From: Flexistipes sinusarabici DSM 4947
Lineage (GTDB): Bacteria > Chrysiogenota > Deferribacteres > Deferribacterales > Flexistipitaceae
DNA length: 64,000 nt
Assembly: GCF_000218625.1 (NCBI RefSeq)
Contig: NC_015672.1
Coordinates: forward strand, 2,393,451-2,457,450
Reading direction: 5' to 3'
Made by a program: the position numbers and the translations under genes. Every line of letters begins with the position of its first letter. Position 1 is the first letter of the stretch. Below, one piece after another: positions 21,575 through 26,256 of this stretch. Below the pieces are notes generated by a model that saw nothing but the letters and a program-made list of their open reading frames with translations, ran no database searches and was not told where the DNA came from.

Positions 21575-22510
21575 ATGAAAAAAATTCTCAGTATTGACGG
21601 AGGGGGAATCAGAGGAATTATACCGTCTATGATACTTTCTGATATCGAGAAAAAAGTTGGCAAGCCCGTGGGTGAATGTTTCGATCTGATTGCCGGCACT
21701 TCCACAGGGGGCATTCTTGCACTCGGGCTTTCCAAAAGCAATGCCGATGGCAAGCCGATGTACTCAGCGGGAAAACTTGCCGAAATTTACAGCAAAAGAG
21801 GAAGAGAAATCTTCAGCCGGTCATTTTGGAAAGGTGTTTCTTCGGTGGGCGGTCTGACCGATGAGCTGTATCCTGCTGATGGGCTTGAAAGACTCCTTGA
21901 TGAGTATTTCGGCAGCGATGTTCTTGGTGATTGTTTAGTAAATACTATTGTTACGTCATATGATATTCAAAACCGGGCACCTGTATTTCTAAAGAGTTGG
22001 CGGAAAAAACACAGTAACGTTCTTATGAAGGATGCGGCGAGAGCCACTTCGGCAGCTCCGACCTATTTTGAACCTGCCCTTGTTAATATTGAGGGTGAGG
22101 ATAAGGCTCTGATTGACGGCGGTGTTTTTATTAATTCTCCCTCCGTTTCAGCCTTTGCAGAGGCTATAAGAATATTTCCCAAAGAAACCGATTTTTTTGT
22201 TCTCTCTTTGGGTACGGGCAAGCAGACACGTCCTATTACGTATAAAGAGGCAAAAAACTGGGGGAAAGCCGAATGGATGCTGCCGGTTATGAGTTGTATG
22301 TTTGACGGCGTGTCCGATGCTGCTGATTATCAGATGAAAAAACTTCTTGGTAAAAGTTATATCAGGCTGCAAACGGACTTGACAATAGCCTCGGATGATA
22401 TGGACAATGCTTCAAACGGTAATGTGGAAAATCTTAAACAGGAGGCGGAGAAACTTATTTTCAAGCATAAAAAAGACCTGAATCGTTTGTACGAAACACT
22501 GCAAAAATAA
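21575..22510 (+). CDS. Patatin-like phospholipase
   Basis: Predicted acyl hydrolase of 311 residues. It opens MKKILSIDGGGIRGIIPSMIL, with the oxyanion-hole GGGIRG, the nucleophile elbow GTSTGG (Ser43) and the catalytic Asp in LIDGGVFIN (Asp181). No signal peptide. This compact cytoplasmic architecture is shared by housekeeping patatins and by CapV-type CBASS effectors, but there is no cyclase gene nearby, so a defence role is not supported here. Confidence 0.85.
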   Translation: MKKILSIDGGGIRGIIPSMILSDIEKKVGKPVGECFDLIAGTSTGGILALGLSKSNADGKPMYSAGKLAEIYSKRGREIFSRSFWKGVSSVGGLTDELYPADGLERLLDEYFGSDVLGDCLVNTIVTSYDIQNRAPVFLKSWRKKHSNVLMKDAARATSAAPTYFEPALVNIEGEDKALIDGGVFINSPSVSAFAEAIRIFPKETDFFVLSLGTGKQTRPITYKEAKNWGKAEWMLPVMSCMFDGVSDAADYQMKKLLGKSYIRLQTDLTIASDDMDNASNGNVENLKQEAEKLIFKHKKDLNRLYETLQK

Positions 22511-22512
22511 GA

Positions 22513-22603
22513 GCTTTGAATAATTTATGGAAGCAGGGCTTCAGTCCCGCATGCTTGACAACACTGAATTTCAAAATAAACTTTGCCCGGCTAAAGCCGC
22601 GGA
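22513..22603. repeat. Palindromic repeat, left part, interrupted by the group II intron
   Basis: CTTTGAATAATTTATGGAAG, then a GCAGGGCTTCAGTCCCGC hairpin and a CCCGGCTAAAGCCG hairpin. The matching end, CTTCCTGAATTATTCAAAG, resumes at 24538 after the intron. The uninterrupted form of the element is at 26137-26256. Confidence 0.75.
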
Positions 22604-23135
22604 GTGCCACGAGGCACCATGTAACACATAGATGTTTGAAATAATTCCAGCAGGTTGCAAGGTACCTGTCAGGGTAATTGCCAGTTCACCCTGAAGTCTG
22701 ACCGGCAGTTTTTTTTTTAGAAAGACTGAAGCCCGGTGACAAAGGCTCTGTAGAGTCGAGACGAGGTGCAGGCCGTAGCATATAAGCGAACTCAGTAAAG
22801 CGTCGTTAGCCAATTGTGAGTGAAGAGGTTGTCGCGGTGATACGAATTCTGCACATGCAGAGAAGAAACTGGTGTAAGCATCTGCATGACTCACCGGCGT
22901 AGTATGAGATGGCATGTACTTAAGGATGTATGGTGAACGTGGGAGGACTTGCATTTCGGGTGGTGGTGACACCCAGAGAATCTTTATAAGGCAAAAGCCG
23001 AAATAAGAATCTTGAAATGCAGGTAGTCGGATGAGCTCATAGTACCTAAGATTGTAAAGACAACATAACTTTACATAGGAAAGGGGCTCAATTTGTTTAG
23101 CGCTTTTAGCGAAATTATCGGAGGTGATTGTCGCA

Positions 23136-24443
23136 ATGGCTAAGACACAGGATTTAAGAATTCGAAAATTTCAACAGAAGCTATACGTAAAATCAAAGCA
23201 GGAGTTGGACTTCAGGTTTTACAGTCTCTATGACAAACTGTGTAGTTATGAATTGCTTGAAGAAGCTTACCGTCAATGTAAAATTAACAAAGGTAAGCCG
23301 GGAGTGGACGGAGAGACATTTTCATTTATTGAAGAATCAGGATTATCGGATTGGCTTACAGCTATACTTGAATTACTTAAGAATCGCAAATATAAGCCGA
23401 GACCAGTAAAACGAGTAATGATACCAAAACCCGGCGGTGGAGAAAGGCCATTGGGTATTCCCACAATAAGAGACCGGGTAGTGCAGACAGCTTGTAAGAT
23501 ACTGGTAGAGCCTATACTGGAAGCGAGATTTGATGACGGATTATACGGATACCGACCACAGAGGAGCAGTCAGGATGCAGTTAAAAGAGTTAAAGAACTG
23601 GTGAAAATGGGTTATAAGCAAGTATATGACTGTGATTTGTCGAATTATTTCGACAATATACCTCATGACAGATTAATGGAGAAGCTTGAGAGACATATAG
23701 TGGATAAATCGATGCTGAAGATACTGAGAAGGATACTGCAAGCACCGGTGCAGGAATTGAATGAGAGAGGCAGACCCTATATAAAGAAACCAAAGAATGG
23801 AACTCCACAGGGAGGTGTAATATCGCCGCTGTTTGCTAATCTATACCTGAATGATTTTATCAGATTAATAAATGAGAAGACCCCGTGTGAAGCAATAGGG
23901 TATGCAGACGATTTTGTAATACTTTACCGTAAAGATTATACCAACAAACAATTGGATTGGATAAGAGGAAAATTAGAACAGGAAGGACTAGAACTTAATG
24001 AAACCAAGACGTCAGTTGTTAATATGAGCAGATTAAAAGCTGAATTTGACTTTCTTGGATTTAACCTGAAGATGGTTAGAAGTCATTATACGATAGGAGG
24101 CAGTTACATACGAACCCAACCGAGCCGTAAAAGTCAGCAGAGATATCGAGATAAGGTACGAAAGATAGTAAAGTCACGTACATATCTGACATTTGCTGAA
24201 ATGATAAAAGCAATAAATAGACTAAACATAGGTTGGTATAATTATTTTGATGGTTTATTGAATACGAGTAAAGTTTATTACAAATTGGATTGGTTTATAG
24301 TCAGGAGATTTTACAGATGGTCGCAGCGGCTAAGTCAGCGTAAGAGTAGGTTCTTGACACCGAGTACTTCGAGGATATTGATAAAGGAAGGATTGATATT
24401 CCTTGCGTTTGCGCGATCTGGTACTGTGAAGGGTTTTATGTGA
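23136..24443 (+). CDS. ltrA: Group II intron reverse transcriptase/maturase
   Basis: 435 residues from ATG 23136 with GGAGGTG upstream (a GTG at 23124 is in frame). RT domain: GKPGVDGETF, RPVKRVMIPKPGGGERPLGIPTIRDRVVQTA, DGLYGYRPQRS, GTPQGGVISPLFANLYLNDF, and catalytic EAIGYADDFVIL. A maturase/domain X follows (RSHYTIGGSYIRTQPSRKSQQRYRDKVRKIV region to WYNYFDGL). The protein ends soon after, with no HNH endonuclease domain, as in intron lineages that use single-stranded targets or stem-loop sites. Intact. Confidence 0.93.
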   Translation: MAKTQDLRIRKFQQKLYVKSKQELDFRFYSLYDKLCSYELLEEAYRQCKINKGKPGVDGETFSFIEESGLSDWLTAILELLKNRKYKPRPVKRVMIPKPGGGERPLGIPTIRDRVVQTACKILVEPILEARFDDGLYGYRPQRSSQDAVKRVKELVKMGYKQVYDCDLSNYFDNIPHDRLMEKLERHIVDKSMLKILRRILQAPVQELNERGRPYIKKPKNGTPQGGVISPLFANLYLNDFIRLINEKTPCEAIGYADDFVILYRKDYTNKQLDWIRGKLEQEGLELNETKTSVVNMSRLKAEFDFLGFNLKMVRSHYTIGGSYIRTQPSRKSQQRYRDKVRKIVKSRTYLTFAEMIKAINRLNIGWYNYFDGLLNTSKVYYKLDWFIVRRFYRWSQRLSQRKSRFLTPSTSRILIKEGLIFLAFARSGTVKGFM

Positions 24444-24455
24444 ATAAGCAAAGTA

Positions 24456-24487
24456 AAGCCGTATGAGGGAAAACCTCACGTACGGAA
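24456..24487 (+). ncRNA. Group II intron domain V
   Basis: AAGCCGTATGAGGGAAAACC then TCACGTACGGA: the compact hairpin with AGC triad and GAAA loop diagnostic of group II domain V, 13 bases downstream of the maturase stop. Confidence 0.85.
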
Positions 24488-24558
24488 TTGACGAGGGGTG
24501 GCTGGATAAGCACAGCGAAGCCAGCTGCCTACTCTACCTTCCTGAATTATTCAAAGCT

Positions 24559-24773
24559 CTCCTACGTTTTTTTATGTTATGGTGGTTGCCACAAAGGTTA
24601 TTAAGGATATATAAAATAAAAAGGTTAGGGACAGAGGACTTCAAAGGTCTTAAGCTTAAAAGCTTCTCCTACGTTTTTTTATGTTATGGTGGTTGCCACA
24701 AAGGTTATTAAGGATATATAAAATAAAAAGGTTAGGGACAGAGGACTTCAAAGGTCTTAAGCTTAAAAGCTTC
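24559..24773. repeat. 107-bp tandem duplication in the IS110 non-coding end
   Basis: Two adjacent, nearly identical 107-bp units starting at CTCCTACG (24561-ish and 24668). Each contains a poly-T tract, GGTGGTTGCCAC, GGTTAGGGACAGAGGACTTC and an AAGCTTAAAAGCTT hairpin. Not a CRISPR: there are no spacers. Confidence 0.85.
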
Positions 24774-24888
24774 TAGTTGAGTCTGTCCCCCGTCCCTAAA
24801 GTCCCCATTAGTTGATTAGGCTTAAAAGCCTCTGTTAATCGGGAGATTGGATTAGGGACCTAACCAAATACTTAACACGAGGTGACAA
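24774..24888 (+). ncRNA. Candidate bridge-RNA region of the IS110 element
   Basis: Non-coding DNA upstream of an IS110 transposase. It carries several pairable blocks: GTCCCTAA (about 24791) complementary to TTAGGGAC in the upstream repeat and at 24853, and AGGCTTAAAAGCCT nested in GATTA...TTAATC (24815-24840). IS110-group elements encode a structured guide (bridge) RNA in this position. Exact ends are unknown; the RNA probably starts within the repeat at 24668. Confidence 0.45.
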
Positions 24889-26073
24889 ATGTTCAAGTAT
24901 TTTATCGGTGTTGATGTTTCAAAAGATAAGTTCAATTTTGCAGTTATCAATGGTGATCTTGAGAACATTGACAATGGCTGTATTGAGATGAACAGGGCCG
25001 GATTCGAGGAGTTTAAATCCAAGCTAGATTTTTACCAGGATATCATAATTGCCATGGAATCCACCGGCAGTTATCACATAAACCTGTTGTCTTTTTTAGG
25101 TGCAAACAATTTCAAAACAGCTCTTGTTAATCCCGCTTTGATAAAAAAATTTTCTGAGGGCTCAACCCTGAGAAAGACAAAAACGGATGAGCTTGATGCT
25201 GTTACAATTGGAAAGTTTATATTTAAAAATATCGAATATTTAGATCGCTTTGTTCCTTATTCGGTGGACGAGGTGACTGCATTGGCAAGGCTCAGGGAAA
25301 ATATAGTAAAAGAGATAGCCAAAACAAAAACCCAACTCAAACAGAATTTGAATTTGGTATTTCCTGAGATTGTCAAAGAATGCAACATTTTCAATGATAC
25401 AATTCTTAATATCCTTGAGGTATTCCCTACCCCTGAAAGTATAAGAAAGGCTCCGAAGTCTAAATTGAAAGGAGTGTTTAACAAAGCATCGAAGGGCAAG
25501 AAGGGCAGGAAACTTTCTTTGACTTATGATAGATTTAAAGAACTTGCCGTGGATTCTATAGGTATATCATCAGAAGGTTACGCAAAGATTGTGGAGCATA
25601 ACATAAAAAGTCTTAAATTTCTTCAGAGCCAGCTTGAGGAGATTTCAAATGATTTTATAGATAAGATAAACGATTCCAAAAAAGATGATATGGAAATACT
25701 AAGTTCTATCAAAGGCATAGGAAATACCACAGCTGCCCATTTTATCGCAGAAGTAAGGGATATCAACAGGTTTGAAAACAGGAACAAACTTTCTGCTTAT
25801 GCAGGCATAGATCCATCATTTAAGGAGTCTGGTACTAGCGTAAATATCAAAGGGAAAGTAACCAAAAAGGGGAACAAATCCCTTCGGAGAGCGTTGTATC
25901 TTATGGCCACTGGGGTTATGAAATTCAATGATTATTTCAGGGCATATTATTTGAAAAAGAAATCAGAGGGGATGTCACACCGGAAGGCTATGATCGCACT
26001 ATGCAATAAGCTACTGAGAACCATATTTGCTTTACTTACAAAAAGAGAATTTTTCGTAATTAAATATAGTTGA
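24889..26073 (+). CDS. IS110-family transposase
   Basis: 394-residue DEDD recombinase. RuvC-like N-terminal domain: GVDVSKDKF (Asp9), AMESTG (Glu57), KTDELDA (Asp100, Asp103). A coiled-coil-like middle leads to the C-terminal Tnp_20 domain with SSIKGIGNTTAAHFIAEV, SAYAGIDPSFKESG and KGNKSLRRALYLMATGV, which supplies the catalytic Ser. GAGGTGACAA precedes the ATG. It appears intact. With the non-coding end upstream, the element fits the IS110 group rather than IS1111. Confidence 0.92.
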   Translation: MFKYFIGVDVSKDKFNFAVINGDLENIDNGCIEMNRAGFEEFKSKLDFYQDIIIAMESTGSYHINLLSFLGANNFKTALVNPALIKKFSEGSTLRKTKTDELDAVTIGKFIFKNIEYLDRFVPYSVDEVTALARLRENIVKEIAKTKTQLKQNLNLVFPEIVKECNIFNDTILNILEVFPTPESIRKAPKSKLKGVFNKASKGKKGRKLSLTYDRFKELAVDSIGISSEGYAKIVEHNIKSLKFLQSQLEEISNDFIDKINDSKKDDMEILSSIKGIGNTTAAHFIAEVRDINRFENRNKLSAYAGIDPSFKESGTSVNIKGKVTKKGNKSLRRALYLMATGVMKFNDYFRAYYLKKKSEGMSHRKAMIALCNKLLRTIFALLTKREFFVIKYS

Positions 26074-26136
26074 CTCCCACTATTTCAGGGGAGATTAAGA
26101 GGGGTACATTCATTGTCAAATAAAGACCTTTGAATA

Positions 26137-26256
26137 ATTTGTTCTTCCATGTTTTAGGAAGTGGGACTTTAGTCCCGCAGGCCTGTGAATACTGAATTTC
26201 AAAAGAACGCTTGCCCGGCTAAAGCCGCGCTTCCTGAGTTATTCAAAGGTCTTAAA
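26137..26256. repeat. Intact palindromic repeat (MITE- or REP-like)
   Basis: About 120 bp with complementary outer arms AGACCTTTGAATAA and TTATTCAAAGGTCT and inner hairpins GGGACTTTAGTCCC and CCCGGCTAAAGCCG. Same family as 14606-14803 and as the intron-split copy at 22513/24538. Confidence 0.75.

What the first reader, a model, noticed from the sequence alone, without database searches (positions are those of the whole stretch)
24559..24888. IS110 non-coding end with a candidate bridge RNA and a 107-bp tandem duplication
IS110 elements encode a structured RNA in the non-coding end that specifies donor and target DNA. Here that end contains mutually complementary blocks and hairpins, and part of it is duplicated exactly in tandem. 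A duplicated guide-RNA segment could give two target loops, an altered start, or mark a junction left by circle formation. The element also sits between two palindromic repeats, which may be its targets.
Basis: partly seen in the sequence, partly recalled or inferred. Interest (0 to 1): 0.62.

Follow-up and report, generated by a model that had tools for sequence, protein, structure and literature searches.

The report
IS110 bridge-RNA end, partly duplicated
This is a jumping gene of the IS110 family whose non-coding end encodes a guide RNA that aims it at the tip of a small repeated DNA element; an exact 107-base tandem repeat has doubled the outer half of that end without creating a second complete guide, and relatives of the element aim the same kind of RNA at the start signals of genes.

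Summary
Confirmed: 24559-24888 is the left end of an IS110 element (recombinase 24889-26073) with an exact 107/107 tandem duplication. The bridge RNA is strongly supported: 15 related ends share one fold (99.2% of cells paired, 11 pairs changed on both sides, 0/500 shuffles). Relatives share CT-CCTAC / TATAGTTGA-CT ends and a junction -35 (TTGACT), and right guides match their own flanks far better than permuted flanks. Here the left guide (TTCAAAGGT-CT) matches the terminal repeat of a palindromic MITE-like element 8/9; the right guide barely matches its (chimaeric) flank.

The duplication spans the donor half-site, -10 region, left guide and hairpin, not the right guide or donor loop. It gives no second target loop and is no circle junction. 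The genome's second copy lacks it. It is probably an illegitimate duplication, possibly recombinase-made: solo left-end fragments ending at internal CT cores sit at other MITE ends in the genus, although IS110 excision is described as scarless.

Unexpected: nine relatives sit between a gene's Shine-Dalgarno and start codon, the right guide reading the Shine-Dalgarno and the element's end restoring AGGAG.

The parts
24559..24665 (+). outer copy of the 107-bp left-end unit: core CT, CCTACG donor half-site, -10 region, 5' arm + left guide + hairpin of target loop
   Evidence: ends defined from relatives
24666..24772 (+). inner, identical copy of the unit; this one belongs to the complete bridge RNA
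   Evidence: identical to the left end of the second genomic copy
24735..24789 (+). target-binding loop of the predicted bridge RNA (stem GGGACAGA/TCTGTCCC, hairpin TAAGCTTAAAAGCTT)
   Evidence: fold, covariation
24747..24757 (+). left target guide TTCAAAGGT-CT
   Evidence: matches left flanks 8/9 and MITE ends exactly
24773..24781 (+). right target guide CTAGTTGAG (predicts CT-CAACTAG)
   Evidence: position from relatives; poor match to own flank
24792..24859 (+). donor-binding loop; left donor guide TTAGTTGATT 24808-24817, right donor guide CGGGAG 24840-24845
24889..26073 (+). IS110 recombinase, 394 aa
26065..26075 (+). right end TATAGTTGA with core CT; supplies -35 TTGACT in the circle
24538..24560 (+). 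right terminal part of the target MITE (left target TTCAAAGCT-CT)
22510..22601 (+). left part of the same MITE, separated from 24538 by a group II intron (RT ORF 23124-24443, domain V/VI 24454-24537)
26124..26252 (.). intact MITE copy beyond the right flank; not the insertion target of this copy

Best explanation
24559-26075 is an IS110-group insertion sequence. Its upstream non-coding end encodes a bridge RNA, made mainly from the excised circle, where right end plus core plus left end build a promoter (TTGACT, 17 nt, TATGGT). The target loop's left guide (UUCAAAGGU-CU) recognises the terminal repeat TTCAAAG(G/C)T-CT of an abundant palindromic MITE-like element, and the donor loop recognises TATAGTTGA-CT-CCTACG. 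The recombinase exchanges strands at the CT core, so the element lands at the boundary between the MITE and its flank. The 107-bp tandem duplication doubles the left end from the terminal CT core to an internal CT at the start of the right guide. It yields two nested left ends but only one complete bridge RNA. Use of the inner end would give a normal circle and leave a 107-bp left-end scar; use of the outer end would give a circle whose longer transcript folds its target loop abnormally. The duplication most likely arose by illegitimate (microhomology TCT) duplication; a recombinase-made origin is possible. Shown: anatomy, homology, conserved fold, guide/flank agreement in relatives, absence of the duplication in the second copy. 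Inferred: expression, activity, origin and consequence of the duplication.
For: Pfam and conserved residues. Two near-identical copies and relatives share ends CT-CCTACG / TATAGTTGA-CT. bRNA covariation: 24 pairs, 99.2% paired, 11 pairs changed on both sides, 0/500 shuffles, slid versions at most 51.5% paired. Right guide versus own flank 57/78 against permuted mean 33.8, maximum 53 in 20000. The left-guide stretch TTCAAAGGTCTTAA occurs exactly at several MITE ends. Left targets: TTCAAAGCT here, TTCAAAAGT in copy 2. Donor-guide complementarity. Conserved junction promoter geometry. MITE target supported by a sister-genome empty site with a CATATTG duplication (L142 vs L141) and an orthologous pre-insertion site (L140 vs L139). 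The joint lacks right-end sequence. Extended transcript is predicted to misfold the target loop.
Against: In both copies of this genome the right target guide (predicted CTCAACTAG) matches only the first flank base after CT, so right-side guiding is not supported in this species. For the window copy this may reflect a chimaeric flank: the right flank lies about 3.3 kb from the MITE in the sister genome G016. The -10 at the junction is poor (TATGGT, 4/6). No expression data. The left guide's length relative to its hairpin varies by a base or two among relatives.
Confidence: 0.85

Rival explanations
1. The duplication was made by the element's own recombinase: a circle inserted into (or a crossover used) the internal CT core at the start of the right guide, treating the guide gene's own DNA as target. 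Homologous collapse then left one full element behind an extra 107-bp left end. Later excision from the inner end would leave solo left-end scars.
For: Both borders of the unit are CT cores. Solo left-end fragments exist at other MITE ends in the genus: three end at GACAGAGGA-CT (L043, L140/L050, L142/L056) and one ends near the same place as the window unit (L042). Three separate fragments sharing one endpoint argue for a site-specific process. GACAGAGGA-CT resembles the left target 5/9.
Against: The window joint AAAAGCTT-CT matches the left guide only 4/9. A 4-bp GACT repeat shared with the right end could explain the 83-bp fragments by slippage, and a 3-bp TCT could explain the window unit. 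L042 is old (90% identity) and its right border is not a clean CT. No such fragments were found for the 9-copy relative G010.
Confidence: 0.27
2. The duplication has a function: an extra promoter region and left guide that change bridge RNA dosage or target choice.
For: The unit contains a left guide and the -10 region.
Against: Neither integrated copy has a -35 (AGCTCT, GCTTCT). The right guide and donor loop are not duplicated. The longer transcript folds worse for the target loop. The second copy lacks it.
Confidence: 0.05
3. The second repeat marks a circle junction, or a tandem pair of elements with most of the first one deleted.
For: Two left ends in tandem.
Against: A junction would read TATAGTTGA-CT-CCTACG; the joint reads AAAAGCTT-CT-CCTACG.
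Confidence: 0.03

Closest known systems
IS621 and other IS110-group elements with bridge RNA (PMC11208160, PMC11208158)
   Same: bRNA upstream of the recombinase, target loop then donor loop, CT core, promoter rebuilt at the circle junction, palindromic repeats as targets
   Different: target is the terminal repeat of a MITE-like element; right guide poorly matched in this species; left end partly duplicated; solo left-end fragments in the genus
ISEc21 and seekRNA elements of the IS110 family (PMC11187229)
   Same: upstream non-coding region guides target choice; circular intermediate with junction promoter
   Different: different target; no Shine-Dalgarno/start-codon targeting was found by keyword look-up in this paper or in PMC11208160
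IS elements targeting REP sequences (PMC1525189, abstract only seen)
   Same: an abundant intergenic palindrome used as landing site
   Different: insertion at the outer boundary of a mobile palindrome, with the flank serving as right target

Membership tests
IS110 family, IS110 group | DEDD (PF01548) plus serine (PF02371) recombinase | tested here: met
   conserved residues
IS110 family, IS110 group | long non-coding end upstream of the recombinase | tested here: met
   223 bp left end without the duplication; only the 2-bp core lies beyond the stop codon at the right end
IS110 family, IS110 group | conserved bRNA with two internal loops | tested here: met
   covariation; fold
IS110 family, IS110 group | left target guide matches the left flank | tested here: met
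   8/9 in both copies of this genome; also in G010 copies
IS110 family, IS110 group | right target guide complementary to the right flank | tested here: inconclusive
   met in most relatives with permutation support; in the window's own species 1 of 6
IS110 family, IS110 group | donor guides match the element ends | tested here: met
   helix CTCC/GGAG; left donor guide TTAGTTGATT vs right end TATAGTTGACT
IS110 family, IS110 group | promoter rebuilt at the circle junction | tested here: met
   by sequence only: TTGACT at the junction in every element, a TA-starting hexamer 17 nt downstream
IS110 family, IS110 group | RNA expressed, bound by the recombinase, and guiding recombination | not testable with these tools
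   no expression or biochemical data
IS1111 group | subterminal inverted repeats and long non-coding region downstream of the recombinase | tested here: not met
   the long non-coding region is upstream and the recombinase stop abuts the right core; subterminal inverted repeats were not tested separately

The most novel reading that the evidence does not exclude
The window element belongs to an IS110 clade whose bridge RNA is written against translation start regions. In nine relatives from several phyla the element lies between Shine-Dalgarno and start codon: the right guide reads the Shine-Dalgarno (AAAAGGAG and variants, varying together with the flank), the left guide tends to begin with CAU opposite the start codon, and the element's own left end (CGTAGGAG on the other strand) puts a new Shine-Dalgarno in front of the displaced gene. 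The window copy is a retargeted member aimed at a MITE terminal repeat. In its genus the recombinase sometimes uses CT cores inside the guide gene as false ends, which produces nested left ends (the 107-bp duplication) and solo left-end scars.
Probability: 0.3. Interest if true: 0.7.

Novelty: new variant of a known kind. Interest (0 to 1): 0.5.

Why it matters
It adds a bridge-RNA system with a clear left target from Deferribacterota (phylum inferred from the names of its nearest relatives) and shows retargeting within a clade: gene-start signals in some relatives, palindromic repeats in two lineages. A natural guide that combines a Shine-Dalgarno with a start codon would be a generic 'insert upstream of any gene and keep it translated' strategy, informative about how guides evolve. 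The left-end fragments, if recombinase-made, would contradict the view that IS110 excision is always scarless and would give a way to count past insertions.

Tried and rejected
Rfam found only the group II intron, no bridge-RNA family. The first genome-contig scan with the single protein found nothing; the alignment query worked. Viral contigs gave no relatives; plasmids gave only relatives 30-33% identical, not used. Two target loops rejected: the right guide is single copy. Circle junction rejected: no right-end sequence at the joint. Self-insertion at the perfect left-guide copy inside the element (position 91 of the left end) rejected as source of the duplication: the joint is at position 108. 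A ranking of internal CT cores by likeness to the left guide did not single out the duplication joint. A consensus promoter scan of the integrated end found none, as expected if the promoter exists only in the circle. The idea that MITE plus left-end fragment moves as one unit is disfavoured: the fragment's outer end is not a terminal repeat, and G000 has a MITE without the fragment at one orthologous site (L139).

Full report
Anatomy. The window lies in a 2,526,590-bp single-contig genome. ORF 24889-26073 is an IS110 recombinase. Its left end starts with CT-CCTACG and its right end is TATAGTTGA-CT at 26065-26075. The left end contains an exact 107-bp tandem repeat: 24559-24665 = 24666-24772 in core register. 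A second copy (L002, 99% identical) has the same ends and a single left end whose 224 bp are identical to the inner copy. The duplication is therefore a change private to the window copy among the copies seen.

Bridge RNA. Fifteen left ends from relatives (recombinases 35-62% identical to the window's) align over most of their length. The consensus fold has a target loop (stem, left guide, hairpin, right guide) and a donor loop (stem, left donor guide, hairpin, right donor guide). On the RNAalifold structure 99.2% of cells are paired, 11 of 24 pairs change on both sides, and no shuffle of 500 reaches this; slid versions reach 51.5% at most. The structure was derived from the same alignment, so part of the excess over slid versions is built in. 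The left-end CTCC pairs with GGAG of the donor loop in 14 sequences: the right donor guide. The left donor guide reads TTAGTTGATT, close to the right end TATAGTTGACT. In the circle, TTGACT at the junction followed 17 nt later by a TA-starting hexamer is conserved; the integrated copies lack a -35. This agrees with the published IS110 circle promoter (PMC11208160).

Guides and targets. Predicted right targets agree with the real right flanks in relatives: 57 of 78 positions against a permuted mean of 33.8 and maximum of 53 in 20,000 permutations. Several of these elements are related, so the permutation value is not a strict probability. The close relatives L094 and L103 show paired change (AAAAGGAG with CTCCTTTT; AAAGGGAG with CTCCCTTA), and L164, found later, shows AACAGGAG with CTCCTGT. 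The G010 relative has nine copies, eight of them beside a palindrome reading CAGTG(A/G)(G/C)AA-CT, matched by its left guide CAGUGGGAA. In the window's own species the left guide TTCAAAGGT-CT matches TTCAAAGCT-CT (window) and TTCAAAAGT-CT (copy 2), but the right guide matches only one base after the core.

Target element. TTATTCAAAG(G/C)TCT is the terminal repeat of a palindromic MITE-like repeat, with about 28 further full or partial matches in this genome. Sister-genome comparison shows an empty site and a CATATTG duplication at one locus (L142 versus L141), and a MITE without a left-end fragment at another (L140 versus L139). The recombinase core CT is the last CT of the MITE, so the right target is whatever flanks the MITE; this would explain the weak right match. 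In the window the MITE is also split by a group II intron (domain V/VI at 24454-24537). The right flank of the window copy is found about 3.3 kb downstream of the MITE in the sister genome, so the flanks are chimaeric, probably after a deletion.

The duplication. It contains the donor half-site, the -10 region, and the 5' arm, left guide and hairpin of the target loop. It lacks the right guide, the 3' arm and the donor loop, so two complete target loops are excluded. The joint lacks right-end sequence, so it is not a circle junction. An RNA started at the outer copy is predicted to misfold its target loop by pairing the outer 5' arm with the only 3' arm. The simplest origin is illegitimate duplication with TCT microhomology; this is inference.

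Solo left ends. In G000 and its congener G016 four left-end fragments lack a recombinase: three end at the same internal GACAGAGGA-CT (L043; L050/L140; L056/L142) and one (L042) ends next to the window unit's border. Orthologous sites show two of the first three to be additions at the MITE-flank CT; at L043 the two genomes differ in more than the fragment. Identical endpoints at separate loci suggest a site-specific process, but a 4-bp GACT repeat shared with the right end is an alternative. The G016 recombinase copy lacks its bridge RNA altogether: its left end runs 69 nt and then straight into the ATG. IS110 excision is described as scarless (PMC11208160), so these fragments are unexplained.

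Relatives that aim at gene starts. L027, L028, L051, L094, L095, L100, L103, L163 and L164 lie immediately upstream of a start codon on the opposite strand, with a right guide (and, where the contig reaches it, a right flank) equal to a Shine-Dalgarno. The displaced genes look real, for example one resembling exodeoxyribonuclease III in L094 and one resembling cysteine synthase in L103 (by eye, not searched). L102 and L165 have a GGAG-type right guide but no such ATG. Among nine elements with enough flank, seven have an ATG 3-11 nt beyond the junction opening an ORF of at least 40 codons. The background is 4.7% of CT sites or 10.7% of CTCCT sites in the window, giving P = 1.7e-8 or 4.6e-6. Caveats: the background comes from another genome, the criterion was set after seeing the first elements, and L163-L165 are the only independent test (2 of 3). 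The left end reads CGTAGGAG outward and so restores a Shine-Dalgarno. Keyword searches of the open-access library found no report of this; subscription papers were not searched.

Nomenclature. Left/right donor and target follow PMC11208160. Genome identity (Flexistipes sinusarabici) is recalled from the genome size and was not tested.

Noticed in passing
L027 (1264), L028, L051, L094 (857), L095, L100, L103, L163, L164: Related IS110 elements sit between the Shine-Dalgarno and the start codon of genes; the right guide equals the Shine-Dalgarno, the left guide tends to begin with CAU, and the left end restores AGGAG on the gene's strand.
   Followed up: partly
window 22510-24560: A palindromic MITE-like element carries a group II intron in its middle and the IS110 at its right terminal repeat: two unrelated mobile elements using one small repeat as landing pad.
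   Followed up: partly
L043, L140, L142 (83-bp type), L042 (107-bp type): Solo left-end fragments of the IS110 at MITE ends; three share the endpoint GACAGAGGA-CT.
   Followed up: partly
L026/L059 (G016): Recombinase ORF intact and 98% identical, but the whole bridge RNA is deleted; no other full copy was found in that genome.
   Followed up: no
L057 (G049:C37): Left end with bridge RNA cut at the right donor guide (CGGGAG), no recombinase matched there: another solo fragment.
   Followed up: no
L101, upstream of the recombinase: A long hairpin (CCAAGACAGCCGCAGCC...GGCTGTCTTGG) is inserted between the left end and the bridge RNA.
   Followed up: no
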